Positions 1-8,200 of a stretch of 8,200 bases of DNA are shown one piece after another. This stretch comes from an uncultured Eubacteriales bacterium (GTDB lineage Bacteria; Bacillota; Clostridia; Christensenellales; Borkfalkiaceae), in NCBI GenBank assembly GCA_900549005.1, contig URMT01000073.1, forward strand, positions 1 through 8,200, given 5' to 3'. The notes beneath the pieces were generated by a model. The model was not told the origin of the DNA and made no database searches. It saw only the letters and a program-made list of their open reading frames with translations. How positions within the stretch are numbered: position 1 is the stretch's first letter; each line of letters starts with the position of its first letter. A program made the translations under genes and the position numbers.

Positions 1-1008
1 GCCGTCTATCTCTATTATGTCGGCTCCGCTTCTGGCAATGCCCGAAGCTATCGCCGCAACGTTGTGCACTGCGGCAACCTTGACGATTACGGGCTTGGTG
101 TATGCAGTCGCCTCTTTTAGGCTGTAAATAAGCTGCCTTAAATCTTCTATCGAATAAATGTCGTGATGGGGCGCGGGCGAAATTGCGTCCACTCCCTTGG
201 GAATCATACGCGTCTTTGAAACGTCGTCGGAAATCTTCATTCCCGGCAGGTGCCCGCCTATGCCGGGCTTTGCGCCCTGGCCCATCTTGATTTCTATCGC
301 GGCGGCGCTCGTAAGGTATTGTTCGTGCACGCCGAACCTGCCCGAAGCCACCTGCACTATCGTGTTCTTGCCGTACTTATAGAAGTCGGAATGAAGTCCG
401 CCTTCGCCCGTGTTGTAGTAGATGCCCAGCTCCTCCGCCGCGCGGGCGAGCGAGGCGTGCGCGTTGTATGAAATGGAGCCGTAGCTCATCGCCGAAAACA
501 TAATCGGCGTGGTAAGCCTGAGCTGGGGCGGGAGATTGTCGACCAGCCTGCCGCGCGCGTCCCTCTTTATCTCCACGTCCTTTTTGCCGAGGTAGACGGT
601 TGTTTCCATCGGCTCGCGAAGGGGGTCTATGGGAGGGTTGGTGACCTGCGAGGCGTTGACCAGAATTTTATTGAAGTATATGGGGTTTTCGGTGGGGTTG
701 CCCATAGAAGAGAGCAGCACGCCGCCCGTATTCGCCTGCCTGTATACCTCGTTCATAGCCTGAACGGGCCAGTTATAGTTCACTTTGTAAGTGTCGTCGC
801 TCTTTACTATCTTCAACGCGTGCGTGGGGCACATACACACGCACCTGTGGCAGTTTACGCACTTGTTGCTGTCGGCAATCATCTTGCCCAGGTCCTTGTC
901 GTACCTGTGCACCTCGTTGGCGCACTGCCTTTCGCACACCCTGCACGCAATGCACAGGTCGGGGTTGCGCACGACCTCGTAATCTGCGGGTATAAATATG
1001 TCTTTCAT
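1..1008 (-). CDS. gltB: Glutamate synthase FMN-binding subunit with N-terminal 2x[4Fe-4S] ferredoxin domain (partial, C-terminus off the left edge)
   Basis: This is the synthase part of a split, archaeal/clostridial-type glutamate synthase, which uses ammonia and reducing equivalents to convert 2-oxoglutarate to glutamate on FMN. The frame is open from ATG at 1008 to base 1 (336 codons). Residues 19-29 have CxxCxxCxxxC and residues 50-60 have CVNCHRCVCMCP, two [4Fe-4S] cluster sites. From about residue 95 the Glu_synthase (FMN) domain follows: FSAMSYGSIS (171-180), GEGGLHSD (201-208), ASGRFGVHEQ (221-230), KMGQGAKPGIGGHLPG (241-256), ISPAPHHDI (276-284) and GADIIEIDG (328-336). The phosphate-binding glycines expected just after IDG are cut off; full-length relatives are roughly 500 residues, so about a third is missing. 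Start choice: AAGGAG at 1021-1016, 7 bases from ATG; the start overlaps the stop of the upstream amidotransferase gene (ATGA), so the two are translationally coupled. The GXGXG subunit and a flavin oxidoreductase partner would be expected further left (inference). Confidence 0.95.
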   Translation of the reverse strand, partial: MKDIFIPADYEVVRNPDLCIACRVCERQCANEVHRYDKDLGKMIADSNKCVNCHRCVCMCPTHALKIVKSDDTYKVNYNWPVQAMNEVYRQANTGGVLLSSMGNPTENPIYFNKILVNASQVTNPPIDPLREPMETTVYLGKKDVEIKRDARGRLVDNLPPQLRLTTPIMFSAMSYGSISYNAHASLARAAEELGIYYNTGEGGLHSDFYKYGKNTIVQVASGRFGVHEQYLTSAAAIEIKMGQGAKPGIGGHLPGMKISDDVSKTRMIPKGVDAISPAPHHDIYSIEDLRQLIYSLKEATAYTKPVIVKVAAVHNVAAIASGIARSGADIIEIDG

Positions 1009-2126
1009 CTGCCCACTCCTTCGCGCAGGGTATAAATGACGGGCTGGCCGCCCGCGGGCGCATAAATTTTATCGAGCTCGGGCTCGATTACCCTTATGCC
1101 GCATTCTTCCGACGAAACGAACGCCAAATCGCCCTTTTCGGCACACACCATAGAGCGCAGTTTAAGCCTGTCGTTGAGCGCCATAAGGCCGCCTTCGAAC
1201 CCGAAAATTATGGAGAAGGGGCCGTTGATGAGCAGCGAGGGGAAGGCCTTGCGCAGGAAAATTTCCTGGCGGCGGTCTTCGGGACTCTTGTCGTCTATCG
1301 TAGACCAGAACGAGGCGGAAATGACCTTTGCCACCTCTTCGAGAGTGAGTTTTTTTACCCTTAAAAGGAAGTCTATTACGTAGGTTATTACCTCGGTATC
1401 GGTCTGCAAGTTGCACTTGTAGCCGAACATCTCTATGTAGCGGCGGTTGGCGTCGTAAGAAGAAATTTCGCCGTTATGCACCACCGAATAGTCGAGAAGG
1501 CCGAAGGGATGAGCGCCGCCCCACCAGCCGGGGGTGTTTGTGGGGTACCTGCCGTGGCTGGTCCACATATAGCCCTCGTACTCCTCGTCAAGAAGGAAAA
1601 ACCTGCCTATGTCTTCGGGGAAGCCCACGCCCTTGAATATGCCCATATTCTTGCCGCTGGAAAAGACGAAGGCGCCCTTTATGTCGGTATTTATTCTGTT
1701 TACGCACTTAACCACGTACTGCTGTTCGTCGAGAAGGGAGTTTGCAAGGCGCTTTGAAAGGGGATATAAAAAGTAGCGGAATATGAGCGGTTCGCCCGTC
1801 ACTCCCCGCACCTTCCTCGTCTTCATCTCCGAGGAATACACCACCTCGAAATGCGCGGCAAGGTAATCTTCCGTCTCTTTGCGCGCTGTGCGGTCGTCGA
1901 AAAAGAGGTGAAAGGCGTAATAATCTTTATAGTCGGGATATATTCCGTAGCCCGCAAAGCCGCCGCCCAGGCCGTTAGACCTGTCGTGCATAGTGGCTAT
2001 CGAACGTATTATCTTGTCGCCCGTCATACGGTTGCCGCTCCTGTCGATGATGGCGCTCACGGCACAGCCTGACGGTATTCTTACTTCGCCCTCCAAGGGC
2101 GCAAATTCATTCTCCGACGTAAACAT
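1005..2126 (-). CDS. Glutamate synthase class II glutamine amidotransferase subunit
   Basis: Stand-alone glutaminase (GATase type 2) subunit of a split glutamate synthase. It hydrolyses glutamine and hands the ammonia to the FMN subunit encoded immediately downstream. From ATG at 2126 the product is 373 residues. The presumed nucleophile is Cys21 in IPSGCAVSAI; in this family an N-terminal propeptide is removed to expose the Cys. Other hallmarks are DRSNGLGGGFAGYG (48-61), HGRYPTNTPGWWGGAHPF (191-208, substrate Arg and WW/HPF loop), HNGEIS (217-222), TDTEV (242-246) and NDRLKLR...SSEE (about 318-341). A TTG start at 2204 would add 26 residues, but the internal ATG has GGAG at 2136-2133 with a 6-base spacer and puts the Cys at a normal propeptide distance. 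The stop overlaps the next start by 4 bases. A strong promoter lies about 130 bases upstream. Known family members contain the GATase fold only, so the lack of a synthase domain is normal for the split enzyme. It could be called gltB1 or glxB-like; its role is clear from the neighbour. Confidence 0.93.
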   Translation of the reverse strand: MFTSENEFAPLEGEVRIPSGCAVSAIIDRSGNRMTGDKIIRSIATMHDRSNGLGGGFAGYGIYPDYKDYYAFHLFFDDRTARKETEDYLAAHFEVVYSSEMKTRKVRGVTGEPLIFRYFLYPLSKRLANSLLDEQQYVVKCVNRINTDIKGAFVFSSGKNMGIFKGVGFPEDIGRFFLLDEEYEGYMWTSHGRYPTNTPGWWGGAHPFGLLDYSVVHNGEISSYDANRRYIEMFGYKCNLQTDTEVITYVIDFLLRVKKLTLEEVAKVISASFWSTIDDKSPEDRRQEIFLRKAFPSLLINGPFSIIFGFEGGLMALNDRLKLRSMVCAEKGDLAFVSSEECGIRVIEPELDKIYAPAGGQPVIYTLREGVGR

Positions 2127-2132
2127 ACCCTG

Positions 2133-2136
2133 CTCC
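2133..2136 (-). promoter_or_regulatory. Ribosome binding site deciding the amidotransferase start
   Basis: GGAG on the minus strand, 6 bases upstream of ATG 2126-2124. It favours this ATG over the longer TTG start at 2204. The 3' foot of a 7-bp hairpin (2138-2154) ends 2 bases upstream of it. Confidence 0.75.
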
Positions 2137-2137
2137 G

Positions 2138-2154
2138 CGGCGGGATTCCCGCCG
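2138..2154 (-). promoter_or_regulatory. Hairpin abutting the amidotransferase ribosome binding site
   Basis: Perfect 7-bp GC-rich inverted repeat CGGCGGG/CCCGCCG with a 3-base loop, ending 2 bases before the Shine-Dalgarno GGAG. The structure itself is seen in the sequence. A role in translation initiation or mRNA stability is inference; it does not occlude the GGAG by itself. Confidence 0.55.
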
Positions 2155-2261
2155 AAAATGTGTATAGTTGCACGATTTTGCGAAAAAGGCCTGCAAATAT
2201 GCAAAACCCGCCCGCGCCGTGCATAAAAATGCGGACATTGCCGCCTTTACGGTTCCCTGTT

Positions 2262-2291
2262 ATTATATAAAAAAACGCGCCTTCAAGTCAA
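2262..2291 (-). promoter_or_regulatory. Sigma-70/A-type promoter of the glutamate synthase operon
   Basis: The -35 TTGACT is at 2291-2286 and the -10 TATAAT at 2267-2262, separated by 18 bases that include a T-run. A start near 2255 would give a leader of about 130 bases before ATG 2126. It is the best promoter match in the gap and reads toward the glutamate synthase genes, so these are probably transcribed separately from clcA. Confidence 0.8.
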
Positions 2292-2423
2292 GCTAATAGG
2301 TTATTCAAAAGGCAATTAAACGCCCGCCCATTCGTTTGATTATATTATAGAAAGTATAAGTCCGGCTTATGGTTCGCCGCACCAACCGGCCGGAAAAGGC
2401 GCAAAACGCGCTTAAAACGCGGC

Positions 2424-2451
2424 GCGGCAGGACTTTTTTAACTCCTGCCGC
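2424..2451 (-). terminator. Candidate transcription terminator downstream of clcA
   Basis: Perfect 9-bp inverted repeat GCGGCAGGA/TCCTGCCGC with a 10-base loop that is mostly a homopolymer run, 83 bases after the clcA stop. On the minus strand no long U-tract follows directly; the next T-runs are only four bases each, several bases downstream. It is a strong stem in the right place but not a textbook rho-independent terminator. Confidence 0.45.
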
Positions 2452-2533
2452 ATTGTGCCGTACGCCTTTGCCTCGGCGTCTGCCGCAAAATTTACATAAT
2501 TTACCTGAACGGCCGCCGTGCAGGCCGCCGCGG

Positions 2534-4141
2534 TTATTTGCCGTCGGGCTCGCCCACTATGTCGGCAAGGTACGCCTTTACGTCCTCTTCCGAGGCGGCA
2601 ACGCACTCGAAGGTTATGAAGTCGCCCGCCGAAAGCCTGGTCTTGCCGTCGGGGACGAAGCGGCCGCCCTCCGCATTTTCAACCTCCACCACCATTCCGC
2701 CCGCAGGCCATAGCACCGAACGGATGCTGCGGCCGTCGGCATACGAGCCCTCTGCAACCTGCAAACGCACCCTGCGCTTTGAGGCGCTGACACGGGCGTT
2801 CTGCTCCTTTACTATAAAATCGAGGCTCTTTTCGAACACCGATTCCGTTCTGAACAGCTCGCCGACGATAAAACCTATGCCCACGCCGAGGAGGGCGGGA
2901 AGAAGGTTCTGGAACTGCCCCGTGAACTCGAATATCATCACAAGTCCCGTTATGGGCGCGCGCACCACTGTGGTGAAGTAGGCCGCCATAGTTATGACGA
3001 TTATATAGTCGGACATTGCGGAATCCATTCCCGCGCTTTCAAACCCGAGGCAAAGCAGTGCGCCCAGCCCTGCGCCCGTTGCAAGCACGGGCACGAATAT
3101 GCCGTACGGCATACCGCATCCGACGGCAAGTATGGTGGAAATAAACCTGAAAACCACCACTATGGCGAGCGTGGCGGCAACAGACAGTCCGAATATTTTT
3201 ATAAACTCTCCTTCGTGCGCGGAGCCGAGCGATTCTATGAACGAATGGCCGCCGCCCATAGCGTACACCGAAATAAGGCCGAACGCACCCGCGACGAAAA
3301 AGGGAATTATATACCTGCCCGCGCCCTTGAAGAAGGTTATCTTTTTGAAGCCCCTGCGCGCGAGCAGCATAAGGTGATAGAAGGCTACGCCCAGAAGCGC
3401 CGCGCACAGCGCGGCTATCGCCGTATACAGGTAGCCCATAGGCTCCATAGGGGCGAACTCGAAAGAAACGAAGGTAAAGCCCGTGGAAAAGCCCATTGCA
3501 TAGCGCATAAGGTTGCGCACGGTGAGCGAGATGAGCACGCTTACCGCCGAACAGGTGAACACCTGCGCCGAGAACGAGCGGAACGCCTCTTCCATTGCGA
3601 ACACCAGCCCCGTCACGGGCGCGTTGAACGCCGCGGCAAGGCCCGCGGAAGAACCCGCGGCAATCTGCAACCTGCGCACCATAAACGAACGCCTTGTAAT
3701 TGCCGCCGCGCCGTCGCCCGCACAGCCGCCTATTTGCAGCGAAGGGCCTTCGCTGCCCGCAGGAAGCCCCATAAACACGCACGCGAGCGAAGCGGCGAAC
3801 ATAGAACACATAACAACATACCACTTGAAGCGCAGCAGGCCGCGCGCCGCGCCCTCTATCTGCGGAACGCCGCTGCCGCGTATCATCGGTATAAAGCGCG
3901 TAGCCGTTCCTATGACGAGCGCGCCCGCGAACAGCCCGATGAACAGCAGGGGCACGAAGACGGGATTTTCCGCCACAAGCATATACAGCTGCGCCGATTT
4001 TTCCTCTGCGATTGCCGTAAGAATGTTGTAGAGCGTGACCACCGTGCCCGCAAAAAGACCCGTGAATATGCTGAGAACAACGAGGTTTATGCCGTATTCA
4101 GAAAGGGCGCGCAGTCTGCGCGAAAATTTACCTTTCACCAT
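2534..4141 (-). CDS. clcA: ClC-family Cl-/H+ antiporter with C-terminal TrkA-C (RCK-C) domain
   Basis: Inner-membrane chloride transporter of the ClC superfamily, 535 residues. The selectivity and gating motifs are intact: GSGVP (89-93, central Ser), GSEGPSLQIG (129-138, with E131 at the extracellular gating-glutamate position) and GIFVP (347-351). FAMEE (181-185) places E185 at the position of the internal proton glutamate (E203 in E. coli ClC), so proton-coupled exchange is more likely than a passive channel. The membrane part spans about 15-430. A soluble tail (about 450-535) resembles TrkA-C: RVRLQVAEGSYADG followed by the VPDGKTRLSAGDF region, a possible regulatory ligand-binding module; no CBS domains are seen. 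The start ATG at 4141 has a GGGTGGA Shine-Dalgarno-like run (4150-4144). It has its own consensus promoter and follows the amt terminator, so it is probably monocistronic. Known roles of relatives are acid resistance and chloride/pH homeostasis; a link to ammonium uptake next door is inference. Confidence 0.93.
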   Translation of the reverse strand: MVKGKFSRRLRALSEYGINLVVLSIFTGLFAGTVVTLYNILTAIAEEKSAQLYMLVAENPVFVPLLFIGLFAGALVIGTATRFIPMIRGSGVPQIEGAARGLLRFKWYVVMCSMFAASLACVFMGLPAGSEGPSLQIGGCAGDGAAAITRRSFMVRRLQIAAGSSAGLAAAFNAPVTGLVFAMEEAFRSFSAQVFTCSAVSVLISLTVRNLMRYAMGFSTGFTFVSFEFAPMEPMGYLYTAIAALCAALLGVAFYHLMLLARRGFKKITFFKGAGRYIIPFFVAGAFGLISVYAMGGGHSFIESLGSAHEGEFIKIFGLSVAATLAIVVVFRFISTILAVGCGMPYGIFVPVLATGAGLGALLCLGFESAGMDSAMSDYIIVITMAAYFTTVVRAPITGLVMIFEFTGQFQNLLPALLGVGIGFIVGELFRTESVFEKSLDFIVKEQNARVSASKRRVRLQVAEGSYADGRSIRSVLWPAGGMVVEVENAEGGRFVPDGKTRLSAGDFITFECVAASEEDVKAYLADIVGEPDGK

Positions 4142-4176
4142 ATTCCACCCGAAAAATTGCTTATTTCCACGCAGAC

Positions 4177-4206
4177 ATTATACCACCCCGCGCGCGCGTG
4201 TGTCAA
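4177..4206 (-). promoter_or_regulatory. Consensus promoter of clcA
   Basis: The -35 TTGACA (4206-4201) and -10 TATAAT (4182-4177) are both perfect consensus, 18 bases apart, with an extended -10 TG one base upstream of TATAAT. The predicted start is near 4170, leaving a leader of about 29 bases. The spacer is dominated by alternating CG/TG steps. Confidence 0.88.
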
Positions 4207-4233
4207 AGCGTTTTGCCGCAAAGAGATACCGCG

Positions 4234-4264
4234 CAAAAGAAAAGCCCGCAAGCATAGCTTGCGG
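4234..4264 (-). terminator. Rho-independent terminator of amt
   Basis: Perfect 8-bp stem CCGCAAGC/GCTTGCGG with a 3-base loop (4264-4246), then GC and a U-rich tail CTTTTCTTTT on the minus strand, starting 45 bases past the amt stop. It separates amt from the clcA promoter immediately downstream. Confidence 0.9.
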
Positions 4265-4308
4265 ACTCTTCTTGTATCTATGAGAGAGCGGGGTGAACTG
4301 AATGAAAA

Positions 4309-6099
4309 TTATTCTGCGGGAGCGGGTTCGGGCTCGTTGGTGAGCGCCTCCATTCCCGTTTCGCCGGTGCGGACGCGCATTACGTTCTCTATGCCCGTCA
4401 CAAAAATCTTGCCTGCGCCGTACTTGCCGTCGTCCAGCACTTTCTGCGCAACGGCAACCACCATCTTGGGGTCTACCGTGCTTACCACTATTTCAACCTG
4501 TACTTTTGGCAGCAGGTGCATAGTCGTCTTTACGCCCCTGTACTGGCCGGTTTTGCCCGCCTGAGTGCCGCAGCCCATTACGTTGGTCACGGTCATTCCG
4601 GTTACGCCTATCTTGGCCATAGCGTCCTTCAAGGTGAGGAACTTCTCCTGGCCGGTTATTATAGTAATCTTTGTATACTTGCTTTCGTTTGCGGGAGCAA
4701 GGTCGATATTCGCGGGAACGACGCCCGAGATATCCACGTCGTCCCCCTCTCCGTCATACGAGGGAACGGAGGGAACGAAGTCGGGGTAGGAAGAAGTGAG
4801 ACCGTGCTCGCATATATCCAGGCCGATGAGTTCCTCTTCGGGATTGCAGCGGAGGCCGTTCCACGTCTTGCCGTAGGCAATTACTTCCGCGGGCTTTACC
4901 GTCTTGTACTTTATCATAACGGGCACGTACTTTATTGCCGCGAAGAAGATAATCATACATACCGTAGTCCAGGCGAGTATGGTGACTATGCCGAGAAGCT
5001 GAATACCTAAAAGCTCCCAGCTGCCCGAATAGAAGAGGCCGTTTTCCACGTCGAAGAAGCCGACGGCGACTATGCCCCATATGCCGTTGGCAAAATGAAC
5101 GGGCACGGCGCCCACGCAGTCGTCGAGGTGGAGCTTGTGTTCGAGCAGCCAGGTGACGCCCATTACGAGGAAGCCTGAAACTATGCCTATCACAAGCGAG
5201 CCTATGATATCCACGTTAGAGCAGCCTGCCGTCACGCCTACGAGGCCTGCGAGCGAGGCGTTCATACTCATCACGAGGTCGGGCTTTTTGTTGCGTATCC
5301 AGGTGTAAATCATCGCCACGAGCAATGCAACCGAGGGAGCGATTGTGGTGGTGACGAAAATTCTTGCGAGCTGGCCTTCTTCCGTTGCGGCGGCGCCGTT
5401 GAAGCCGTACCAGCCGAACCAGAGTATGAGCACGCCCAGCGCGCCTATGGTCATATTGTGGCCCTGAATTGCGTTTACCTTTATTACTTTGCCGTTTTCG
5501 TCGCGCTCGAACTTGCCGATGCGCGCGCCGAGGAAGATTATGCCGATAAGCGAAGCGGTGCCGCCTACCGTATGTATTGCGCCCGAACCTGCGAAGTCGA
5601 CGAATCCGACGCCGAGGTTTACGAGCCAGCCCTGCGAATTCCATACCCAACCCGCTTCAACGGGATATACTATGAGGGAAATCATAGCCGAGTATACGCA
5701 GTAAGCCAGAAAGCGGGTTCTTTCTGCCATAGCGCCCGAAACTATCGTTGCGGCGGTTGCGCAGAACACGAGGTTGAACACGAAACTTGCGGCGGTAGAT
5801 ACGGCCTCGTCATATACGGCCTGCCCCACTGCCTCCGCGCCGTCGAACAAAGTCCGGAAGCAGGAGAAGATATCCAGGTTGGGAACGCCTATGAAGCCAG
5901 CCACGTAGTCAACGCCCATCATCAGCCCGAAGCCGAGGAAGAGGAAGCATACGCAGCCGATACAGAAATCGACAAAGTTCTTGAACAGAATGTTGCCTGT
6001 GTTTTTTGCCCTGGTGAAACCTGTTTCGACCATAGCAAAGCCGCACTGCATAAAGAATACTAACGCCGCGCCGATGAGAAGCCAAGCAGTCCAAGTCAT
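4309..6099 (-). CDS. amt: Ammonium transporter (Amt) fused to a C-terminal P-II signalling domain
   Basis: Membrane ammonium channel of the Amt/Mep/Rh family, 596 residues, about 400-430 of them the usual Amt domain. It opens with CGFAMVETGFTRAKN (19-33). The twin pore histidines are H176 (GSGAIH) and H335 (VPVHFANG). A cytoplasmic tail (about 400-440) and an acidic, Pro/Ser-rich linker (about 440-473) lead to a P-II domain (about 475-590). That domain aligns without gaps to E. coli GlnB with an offset of 474: Q513 (Q39), K532 (K58), K564 (K90), R575 and R577 (R101/R103) and RTGE are kept. The uridylylated Tyr51 is Thr525, Arg38 is Thr512 and Asp88 is Ala562. Uridylylation at the usual site is therefore impossible, while 2-oxoglutarate/ATP sensing is plausible (inference). 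P-II proteins normally block Amt as separate trimers; here the regulator is tethered. ATG 6099 is preceded by GGAAG 8 bases away. A terminator follows the gene, and glutamine synthetase lies upstream. Confidence 0.95.
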   Translation of the reverse strand: MTWTAWLLIGAALVFFMQCGFAMVETGFTRAKNTGNILFKNFVDFCIGCVCFLFLGFGLMMGVDYVAGFIGVPNLDIFSCFRTLFDGAEAVGQAVYDEAVSTAASFVFNLVFCATAATIVSGAMAERTRFLAYCVYSAMISLIVYPVEAGWVWNSQGWLVNLGVGFVDFAGSGAIHTVGGTASLIGIIFLGARIGKFERDENGKVIKVNAIQGHNMTIGALGVLILWFGWYGFNGAAATEEGQLARIFVTTTIAPSVALLVAMIYTWIRNKKPDLVMSMNASLAGLVGVTAGCSNVDIIGSLVIGIVSGFLVMGVTWLLEHKLHLDDCVGAVPVHFANGIWGIVAVGFFDVENGLFYSGSWELLGIQLLGIVTILAWTTVCMIIFFAAIKYVPVMIKYKTVKPAEVIAYGKTWNGLRCNPEEELIGLDICEHGLTSSYPDFVPSVPSYDGEGDDVDISGVVPANIDLAPANESKYTKITIITGQEKFLTLKDAMAKIGVTGMTVTNVMGCGTQAGKTGQYRGVKTTMHLLPKVQVEIVVSTVDPKMVVAVAQKVLDDGKYGAGKIFVTGIENVMRVRTGETGMEALTNEPEPAPAE

Positions 6100-6114
6100 A
6101 AAATTATCTTCCGA

Positions 6115-6128
6115 TTAAAAATTTTTAA
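6115..6128. repeat. AT-only 14-bp perfect palindrome upstream of amt
   Basis: TTAAAAATTTTTAA is a perfect palindrome lying directly upstream of the amt Shine-Dalgarno. It could be an operator or simply an AT-rich translation-enhancing tract. Confidence 0.6.
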
Positions 6129-6175
6129 GCGGGAAGGCCGCGTAATCCGGCCATATGCGGCGGGCAATTCAAAGG

Positions 6176-6199
6176 TCTGTGTAAAAAATCTGTGTAAAA
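6176..6199. repeat. Tandem 11-bp direct repeat upstream of amt
   Basis: TCTGTGTAAAA occurs twice exactly (6176-6186 and 6189-6199, plus strand), with a 13-base period, 77-100 bases before the amt start. Exact short repeats in an upstream region are typical of regulator binding sites, but no regulator is known here. Confidence 0.65.
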
Positions 6200-6358
6200 T
6201 TCTTTAAAAAACTGCCGCCCCGTCCCGCAGGGTTTATTGGAAAATATTTTATGTACGCGTAAAAAACTGCTCTCTCATCTGCCGCCGTGCGGCAAAACTT
6301 ACGCCGTTACACTCCGCCTTTGCGGGCGGAAAAATTTTGTTACAGTATATGTTGCAAC

Positions 6359-6403
6359 CTGCGCGCCGCACGCGCCCTTACATTTTGCGCGGGCGGCGCG
6401 CAG
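6359..6403. promoter_or_regulatory. Strong stem-loop in the glutamine synthetase-amt gap
   Basis: CTGCGCGCCGC (6359-6369) and GCGGCGCGCAG (6393-6403) form a perfect 11-bp stem. After one A/G mismatch, 5 more G-C pairs (6371-6375 with 6387-6391) close an 11-base loop. No U-tract follows on either strand. It could be a factor-dependent terminator, an mRNA 3' stabiliser for the glutamine synthetase transcript or part of an amt leader. Confidence 0.6.
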
Positions 6404-6427
6404 ATTTACTTTAAAAGTTACGTTAGT

Positions 6428-6444
6428 TGCGGCATATTGCCGCA
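6428..6444. repeat. Small hairpin after the glutamine synthetase stop
   Basis: TGCGGCA/TGCCGCA forms a perfect 7-bp stem with a 3-base loop, beginning 41 bases past the stop codon. A run of Ts comes only about 14 bases later, so it is at best a weak terminator. Confidence 0.45.
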
Positions 6445-6485
6445 TCAATTACTTTTTTTGTCTTGTATTTTTGCCGCCGATACCC

Positions 6486-8111
6486 TTACTTTACGCTGTA
6501 CAGAAGTTCGGTGTAAGAAGGATAGGGCCAGTAATCTTCCGAAGTGAGCGTCTCCATTTCGTCGGCAATGCCGCGCACGACCTGCATCTGCGGAATGACC
6601 TTGTGAGCCATAGCCTTTGATGCGGGGCGGACGTCCTCTTTGTCTATGCCCGCAAGCAGAGCTTCGAGCTTGGCAACTTCGGCAGAGAACTTATCGTTGA
6701 GCGCAGCCAGACGGGAAATGAGACTCTTTTCTGTATCACAGGGGATATTTTCCGATACCGCCTTCTTTGCGGCCACGTTCGAGCAAAGCTCGGCAACGTA
6801 GTCGGATACGGCGGGGATTATGTCCTGCTTAGACATTTTGAGCATAGTGAGCGCCTCGATATTTATTATCTTGACGTAGTTTTCCAGCCTTACCATAGCG
6901 CGGGCGACAGCCTCCTGCTCGGTATATACGCCGTTGTTCACGAACACGTCGATATTCTTCTTTTCAAAGAATACGTCGGTTGCGTCGGCGGTGTTCTTAT
7001 TGTTCAAAAGGCCCCTTCTCTCGGCCTCGGGCTCCCAGGCGGGGCCGTAGCCGTCGAGATTGAATATTATGCGCTTGTGTTCTTTGATTGTGGAAGTGAT
7101 AAGCTCGCGTGCGGCAGACTCTACGTCGGAAGCCTTTTCGAGCTTATCTGCAAATTCAGAGAACGCCTGCGAAATTATTGTGTTGAGCACTATGTTTGCG
7201 TCGGCCACGTTTGCCTGCGAGCCGAGCATTCTGAATTCAAATTTGTTGCCCGTGAACGCGAAGGGCGAAGTCCTGTTCCTGTCGGATGCGTCCTTGGGGA
7301 AGATGGGCGATTCGGGAACGCCGATAGAGCCCTCCTGCGCGCGGAAGGGGATATAGTCCTTGCCGTTTGCGATGCTGTCTACCAGGTCGCCGAGCTGGTC
7401 GCCGAGGTATACCGAAATGATTGCGGGGGGAGCTTCGTTTGCGCCCAGACGGTGGTCGTTGCCCGCAGAGGCTACCGCGCCCCTTAAAATGCCCTGATAG
7501 TCGTCAACCGCCTTGATTACCGCGGCGAGCACGAGCATAAACAGCGTGTTCTTTTCGGGGTTGGGGCCCGGTTCGAGCAGGTTGAGGCCCGTATCGGTAG
7601 ACATAGACCAGTTGTTGTGCTTGCCCGAGCCGTTTATGCCCTCGAAGGGCTTTTCGTGCAGAAGGCACCTGAGTCCGTGCTTCTGCGCAACCTTCTTCAT
7701 AAGCTCCATAGTGAGCATATTTGAATCTATTGCGACGTTGGTCGTGGAATATACGGGCGCCATCTCGTGCTGGGCGGGAGCGACTTCGTTATGCCTCGTC
7801 TTTGAAGGTATGCCGAACGACCACAGAGTTTCGTCGAGGTCGGCCATAAAGTCTGCTATGGCGGGCTTTATTGTGCCGAAGTAGTGGTCTTCAAGCTCCT
7901 GTCCGCGGAGAACGGGCGCGCCGAACAGCGTTCTGCCAGTCATTCTGAGGTCTATGCGCTTTTCGTACTCCTCTTCCGAAATGAGGAAGTATTCCTGCTC
8001 GGGTCCGACCGTGGTGGTAACCTTTTTGCACTCTATGCCGAAGAGCTTCAAAATTCGCTTGGCCTGCATATCGAGCGCCTTCATCGACTTTAAAATGGGC
8101 GACTTTTTATC
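6486..8111 (-). CDS. glnN: Type III glutamine synthetase (GSIII), N-terminus lost at a chimeric junction
   Basis: Cytoplasmic enzyme that makes glutamine from glutamate, ammonia and ATP; the GSIII family is common in Bacteroidetes, cyanobacteria and Clostridia. Reading back from TAA at 6488-6486, homology is continuous to 8111. Numbering from the in-frame ATG at 8084, the motifs are PEQEYFL (28-34, metal-ligand region), KTRHNEVAPAQHE (95-107), NGSGKHNNWSM (151-161), AGNDHRLGANEAPPAII (207-223) and NRTSPFAFTGNKFEFR (270-285), ending in WPYPSYTELLYSVK. That ATG is not the true start: the nine codons before it read DKKSPILKS, matching the family's DKKTPLLRS segment, and no ribosome binding site precedes it. 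GSIII is about 700 residues, so roughly 160 N-terminal residues are missing. The frame runs into Alu-like sequence and a TGA at 8120-8118. The truncation is probably an assembly artefact, not a pseudogene. The ammonium transporter follows downstream. Confidence 0.93.
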   Translation of the reverse strand, partial: DKKSPILKSMKALDMQAKRILKLFGIECKKVTTTVGPEQEYFLISEEEYEKRIDLRMTGRTLFGAPVLRGQELEDHYFGTIKPAIADFMADLDETLWSFGIPSKTRHNEVAPAQHEMAPVYSTTNVAIDSNMLTMELMKKVAQKHGLRCLLHEKPFEGINGSGKHNNWSMSTDTGLNLLEPGPNPEKNTLFMLVLAAVIKAVDDYQGILRGAVASAGNDHRLGANEAPPAIISVYLGDQLGDLVDSIANGKDYIPFRAQEGSIGVPESPIFPKDASDRNRTSPFAFTGNKFEFRMLGSQANVADANIVLNTIISQAFSEFADKLEKASDVESAARELITSTIKEHKRIIFNLDGYGPAWEPEAERRGLLNNKNTADATDVFFEKKNIDVFVNNGVYTEQEAVARAMVRLENYVKIINIEALTMLKMSKQDIIPAVSDYVAELCSNVAAKKAVSENIPCDTEKSLISRLAALNDKFSAEVAKLEALLAGIDKEDVRPASKAMAHKVIPQMQVVRGIADEMETLTSEDYWPYPSYTELLYSVK

Positions 8112-8113
8112 GT

Positions 8114-8172
8114 GGGTTCACGCCATTCTCCTGCCTCAGCCTCCCGAGTAGCTGGGACTACAGGCGCCCGCC
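8114..8172 (-). mobile_element. Human Alu (AluY-like) SINE fragment, probable contamination/chimera
   Basis: On the minus strand, 59 bases from GGCGGGCGCC (8172) through TGTAGTCCCAGCTACTCGGG to GTGAACCC (8114) match the right-arm interior of the human AluY consensus, as I recall it, without a mismatch. The AATGGCGTGAACC variant is the AluY-type form. On the plus side the consensus would continue with ACCACGCC after 8172, and on the other side with CCCGGG before 8114; both are broken here, so this is an internal fragment with two junctions. Alu elements are primate-specific and not found in bacterial genomes, so human DNA in the library or a chimeric read is by far the likeliest source. Confidence 0.93.
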
Positions 8173-8200
8173 TCAAAAAACTATTGTATCGTAACTCTAT
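8173..8200. other. Unassigned 28-base tail beyond the Alu fragment
   Basis: AT-rich sequence that continues neither the Alu consensus nor the glutamine synthetase frame. No translation resembles the expected GSIII N-terminal segment. It may be human flank, another chimeric piece or read-end noise; too short to identify. Confidence 0.5.

What the first reader, a model, noticed from the sequence alone, without database searches (positions are those of the whole stretch)
8114..8172. Human AluY fragment embedded at the end of a bacterial contig
59 consecutive bases match my recollection of the human AluY consensus (antisense on the plus strand), joined directly to bacterial glutamine synthetase coding sequence. 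No bacterial process explains a primate SINE piece with no mismatch I can find; chimeric library molecule, contaminating human read or misassembly is the straightforward reading. It matters because the contig end, the apparent gene truncation and any protein record made from it would be wrong.
Basis: partly seen in the sequence, partly recalled or inferred. Interest (0 to 1): 0.85.

Follow-up and report, generated by a model that had tools for sequence, protein, structure and literature searches.

The report
Primate Alu scrap ends bacterial contig
The last 88 bases of this bacterial contig do not continue its gene: 59 of them match a primate (probably human) Alu repeat, which likely got there through a chimeric sequencing molecule and not through gene transfer, so the shortened glutamine synthetase read from this contig is very likely an artefact.

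Summary
Two library results agree: a weak Rfam match to mir-1268 (its Alu origin is recalled), and a 92% match to a two-armed, 7SL-like (Alu) element in an E. coli record. The window is very probably the whole contig: its own protein is listed from one contig of 8200 bases. The scrap ends 28 bases before the contig end.

Bases 1-8112 are an ordinary Clostridia nitrogen-assimilation locus with the gene order of a relative. In the 12 closest genomes the type III glutamine synthetase gene runs on uninterrupted (open frames 695-738 aa; here 532). Identity to them is 22-26 of 29 bases on the gene side of the junction and 17-22 of 87 beyond it, chance level.

Best reading: a chimeric read or library molecule (bacterium joined to primate DNA) left as an overhang at an assembly end. 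True Alu transfer is not strictly excluded without reads, but very unlikely. Ordinary artefact; low interest.

The parts
8114..8172 (-). AluY fragment, consensus positions 148-206 (right arm)
   Evidence: 59/59 identity to the recalled consensus; weak mir-1268 match; 92.3% over 52 bases to an Alu-like element in an E. coli record
8173..8200 (.). 28-base tail of unknown origin, 25% GC, up to the contig end
   Evidence: 0 in viral contigs, 0 of 398 family genomes with up to 2 mismatches, no better than shuffles in 81 loci plus the window or against recalled adapters
8113..8113 (.). Junction base that fits neither side
   Evidence: differs from 12 of 12 closest relatives, while 8112 agrees with 11 of 12
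6486..8112 (-). Type III glutamine synthetase gene, 5' part missing; ATG-started frame 6486-8084 gives 532 aa
   Evidence: Pfam Gln-synt_C and Gln-synt_C-ter, no GSIII_N; relatives about 693 aa
4309..6099 (-). Ammonium transporter fused to a P-II domain (bacterial context)
   Evidence: Pfam PF00909 and PF00543; same neighbour in L115 and L116
2534..4141 (-). CLC-type channel/transporter gene (bacterial context)
   Evidence: Pfam PF00654; same neighbourhood in L115 and L116
1005..2204 (-). Class II glutamine amidotransferase gene (bacterial context)
   Evidence: Pfam PF00310; same neighbour in L115
1..1008 (-). Glutamate synthase core gene, cut by the other contig end
   Evidence: Pfam PF01645; open at position 1; same neighbour in L115

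Best explanation
The last 88 bases of the contig (8113-8200) do not continue the bacterial gene and hold a 59-base exact match to the AluY consensus; they likely come from one chimeric sequencing read or library molecule in which bacterial DNA was joined to contaminating primate, probably human, DNA. Shown: the Alu match (to a recalled consensus), the sharp loss of similarity to all 12 closest relatives at 8112/8113, and uninterrupted genes in those relatives. Inferred: the assembly stopped in the conserved synthetase gene and kept the chimeric overhang as its end. Also inferred: because the foreign part brings stops into the frame, the gene caller fell back on an internal Met and produced a 532-aa protein without the first 161 residues. 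I favour a chimera at the molecule or read level over a graph mis-join, because the window's Alu end and the relatives' gene share at most 3 consecutive bases in register at the junction, far below an assembly word.
For: 59/59 match; Alu-like kin on independent RNA models; one contig of 8200 bases listed for the window's protein, so the piece is terminal; 17-22 of 87 bases identical to the 12 closest relatives beyond the junction against 22-26 of 29 on the gene side; 12 of 12 closest relatives with open frames of 695-738 aa; three stops in frame in the foreign part; junction query in 0 of 391 class genomes (no positive control); the same kind of chimera, a Pseudomonas/human Alu-bearing read, is in print (Longo et al. 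2011).
Against: No reads or coverage were available, so the chimera itself is not shown. The 28-base tail is unexplained and makes a second junction. Four other protein clusters among the 120 listed start at the same internal Met with no known Alu, so truncation at this Met has at least one other cause. No human genome could be searched.
Confidence: 0.86

Rival explanations
1. Assembly mis-join: separate, clean primate and bacterial reads were merged by the assembler through a shared short word, or by scaffolding.
For: Would also put the foreign piece at a contig end; metagenome assemblies tend to break in conserved genes (general knowledge).
Against: At the junction the window's Alu end and the 12 closest relatives share at most 3 consecutive bases in register, too short for an assembly word; there is no run of N in the window to suggest scaffolding.
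Confidence: 0.1
2. A real insertion: the bacterium took up primate host DNA and an AluY piece now interrupts its glutamine synthetase gene.
For: Human L1 pieces in Neisseria gonorrhoeae are a published precedent (passages; the original paper is not held).
Against: The piece lies at the end of the contig, is exact to consensus, and was seen in no second record: junction word 0 in viral contigs, junction query 0 of 391 class genomes (no positive control). It starts and ends inside Alu and shows neither poly(A) nor a target-site duplication by eye. It would remove an N-terminal domain that the closest relatives keep.
Confidence: 0.02
3. A bacterial sequence that only resembles Alu, by chance or as an unknown bacterial repeat.
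Against: 59/59 identity is beyond chance. No match in plasmids at E up to 10; 0 of 391 class genomes (no positive control); 0 exact in viral contigs; three phage records match only short stretches at E 4. The one strong relative found is Alu-like on independent RNA models.
Confidence: 0.005

Closest known systems
Human AluY contamination of non-primate sequence databases (Longo et al. 2011, PMC3040168; part 1 of 2 of the text read)
   Same: AluY-bearing human DNA inside non-primate records, including one read that is half Pseudomonas and half human
   Different: Their criterion (over 98% identity and a unique human locus) could not be tested here; the piece is 59 bases at a contig end
Spurious bacterial proteins from human repeats (Breitwieser et al. 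2019, not held; known here through passages of Steinegger and Salzberg 2020, PMC7218494)
   Same: A human repeat in a bacterial assembly leads to a wrong protein record
   Different: Here the wrong record is a truncated real protein, not a translated repeat
Human L1 piece in Neisseria gonorrhoeae (Anderson and Seifert 2011, not held; passages of PMC3848584 and PMC6998845)
   Same: A human retroelement piece next to bacterial sequence
   Different: There 685 bp at 98-100% identity and found in 13 isolates of one collection back to 1946; here one contig end and no second isolate

Membership tests
AluY SINE (fragment) | Identity to the AluY consensus over the aligned part | tested here: met
AluY SINE (fragment) | Complete two-armed element of about 280 bases with poly(A) tail and target-site duplication | tested here: not met
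   Only positions 148-206 are present; no poly(A) and no flanking direct repeat seen by eye in 8098-8188. It is a fragment, not an element
Human contamination / chimeric contig end | Foreign piece at a contig end, absent from close relatives | tested here: met
   Contig of 8200 bases; 17-22 of 87 bases identical to 12 relatives; uninterrupted gene in 12 of 12
Human contamination / chimeric contig end | Over 98% identity to a unique human locus (criterion of Longo et al.) | not testable with these tools
   No human genome available
Human contamination / chimeric contig end | Clipped reads or a coverage break at the junction | not testable with these tools
   No reads available
Genuine host-to-bacterium transfer | Same junction in independent isolates or assemblies | tested here: inconclusive

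The most novel reading that the evidence does not exclude
A gut Clostridia strain captured a piece of its primate host's AluY repeat inside its type III glutamine synthetase gene: a host-to-commensal transfer of a SINE that removed the enzyme's N-terminal domain.
Probability: 0.02. Interest if true: 0.85.

Novelty: not a real feature. Interest (0 to 1): 0.08.

Why it matters
As biology it very likely does not matter: it is a data-quality flag. Bases 8113-8200 should not be used as sequence of this bacterium, and the 532-aa glutamine synthetase record made from the contig (P0001, a cluster of 14 member sequences) should be treated as N-terminally truncated. If it were genuine it would be a first-rank case of host-to-commensal DNA transfer, which is why read mapping deserves the little time it takes.

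Tried and rejected
Whole-genome context: no genome is held for the window, so coverage and the rest of the genome could not be examined. Origin of the 28-base tail: viral contigs, 398 family genomes with up to 2 mismatches, 81 fetched loci plus window 1-8172 against 5 shuffles (20 of 28 bases, shuffles 19-21), and 14 recalled adapter sequences against 200 shuffles (a 7-base match, reached by 80 of 200 shuffles). All empty or at chance. Plasmids gave no match. The three phage records at E 4 were rejected as chance. Rfam ctRNA_p42d at 4233-4272 was rejected as a sub-threshold, terminator-like hairpin. I considered a natural split of the synthetase gene at the internal Met, because four other clusters share this start; I set it aside because the 12 closest genomes have one uninterrupted frame, but the DNA of those four clusters was not available. 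A positive control for one search was tried and could not be run. The paper searches on chimeric reads in metagenomes and on spurious proteins gave listings and abstract starts only, from which I took nothing beyond Steinegger and Salzberg 2020.

Full report
What is there. The segment 8114-8172 is, on the minus strand, identical at 59 of 59 bases to positions 148-206 of the AluY consensus, and the script found no other exact match of 12 bases or more to that consensus in the window. Rfam gave two matches up to E 1 in the whole window; the one in this part is mir-1268 at 8135-8183 minus (31.2 bits, E 0.01, gathering score 83). It is weak on its own; that mir-1268 lies in Alu sequence is recalled. 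Blastn of 8086-8200 found a place in 1 of 5,426 E. coli genomes, 52 bases at 92.3%, in NZ_CP121294.1. There, two neighbouring stretches (L081 3963-4070 and 4090-4204, minus) each match the metazoan SRP RNA family, at E 1.9e-8 and 7.1e-11, both below its gathering score, and mir-1268 matches too at E 6.9e-7. That element is 228 of 259 identical to the recalled AluY consensus. The two-armed, 7SL-derived layout is that of Alu (recalled).

Where it sits. The homolog search lists the window's own protein, P0001 (532 aa), with one contig of length 8200. So the window is very probably the entire contig, and the Alu piece ends 28 bases from its end. The other end cuts the glutamate synthase gene. Bases 1-8112 form an ordinary locus: glutamate synthase core, glutamine amidotransferase, CLC channel, ammonium transporter fused to a P-II domain, and type III glutamine synthetase. 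All five stand in the same order and direction in L115, at 71-94% protein identity; in L116 the three genes that the fetched stretch holds (synthetase, transporter, CLC) stand in the same order at 81-92%, with 1.6 kb between transporter and CLC. The best named relatives, at 70-75% identity, are genomes titled uncultured Clostridia bacterium or uncultured bacterium, and five of the 120 listed proteins, at 75-76%, bear the name Candidatus Coproplasma. A gut origin is inferred from such names.

What is broken. A relative 94% identical over the 532 residues is 693 aa long and has the GSIII_N domain that the window's protein lacks. In the relatives' family, 363 of 398 genomes have a match to the query; the 12 closest, at 88-92% identity, have open frames of 695-738 aa, none with a stop inside. 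Compared in register with those 12, the window agrees at 22-26 of 29 bases in 8085-8113 and at 252-273 of 300 bases in the next stretch of the gene, but at only 17-22 of 87 in 8114-8200, which is chance. The change is sharp: 8112 agrees with 11 of 12 and 8113 with none of 12. Read backwards into the foreign part, the gene's frame meets three stops.

The tail. Bases 8173-8200 do not continue the recalled Alu consensus. They are 25% GC against 54.6% for 1-8113; 79 of the 8,086 28-base stretches of 1-8113 are as poor in GC. They were not found in viral contigs or in 398 genomes of the family with up to two mismatches, and match the fetched loci and recalled adapters no better than shuffles do. 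They may be the primate flank of a truncated Alu or a third fragment; I cannot tell.

How it arose. The most likely course is a single chimeric read or library molecule (bacterial gene, then primate DNA) left as an overhang where the assembly stopped; this is inferred. A graph mis-join would need a shared word at the junction, and the window's Alu end and the relatives' gene share at most 3 consecutive bases in register there. Longo et al. 2011 (PMC3040168; part 1 of 2 read) screened 2,749 non-primate databases with AluY, found 492 contaminated, and show a chimeric Pseudomonas/human read. Steinegger and Salzberg 2020 (PMC7218494, passages) cite an earlier study's 3,437 spurious bacterial proteins from human repeats.

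The bold alternative. Host DNA in bacteria has a precedent: human L1 pieces in gonococci (passages). Nothing found here supports it for this contig. The piece is terminal, exact to the consensus and seen once. The junction query is absent from 391 genomes drawn from the class, but that result has no positive control, because the E. coli record could not be searched that way. Metagenome contigs could not be scanned. Reads would settle it.

Results against my reading. Four other protein clusters among the 120 listed of 7,989 (P0005, P0013, P0016, P0031) start at the same internal Met. So records truncated here recur without a known Alu. Contig ends in this conserved gene would explain them, but I could not read their DNA. 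And the tail leaves a second junction without an explanation.

Noticed in passing
L081 3946-4204 (NZ_CP121294.1, record about 4798221-4798479): An E. coli chromosome recorded as a complete genome holds a nearly full-length Alu element (228 of 259 identical to the recalled consensus; two SRP-like arms), in an unannotated gap beside several genes flagged as partial in the middle of a contig; it looks like contaminating contigs joined into the chromosome.
   Followed up: partly
proteins P0005, P0013, P0016, P0031: Four other clusters of 532-533 aa start at the same internal Met as the window's protein, one of them with a 73.6-kb contig; truncated synthetase records at this point recur.
   Followed up: partly
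protein P0013: By eye in the alignment, roughly its first 230 residues are far from the close relatives and the rest is near-identical in pattern to them; it looks like a chimera or a recombinant.
   Followed up: no
window 4309-6099: The ammonium transporter carries a C-terminal P-II regulator domain in one 596-aa frame (PF00909 and PF00543).
   Followed up: no
window 4233-4272: Hairpin followed by a T-rich run on the minus strand, just upstream of the CLC gene and downstream of the transporter gene, matched below threshold by ctRNA_p42d (26.8 bits, gathering 50); looks like an intrinsic terminator.
   Followed up: no
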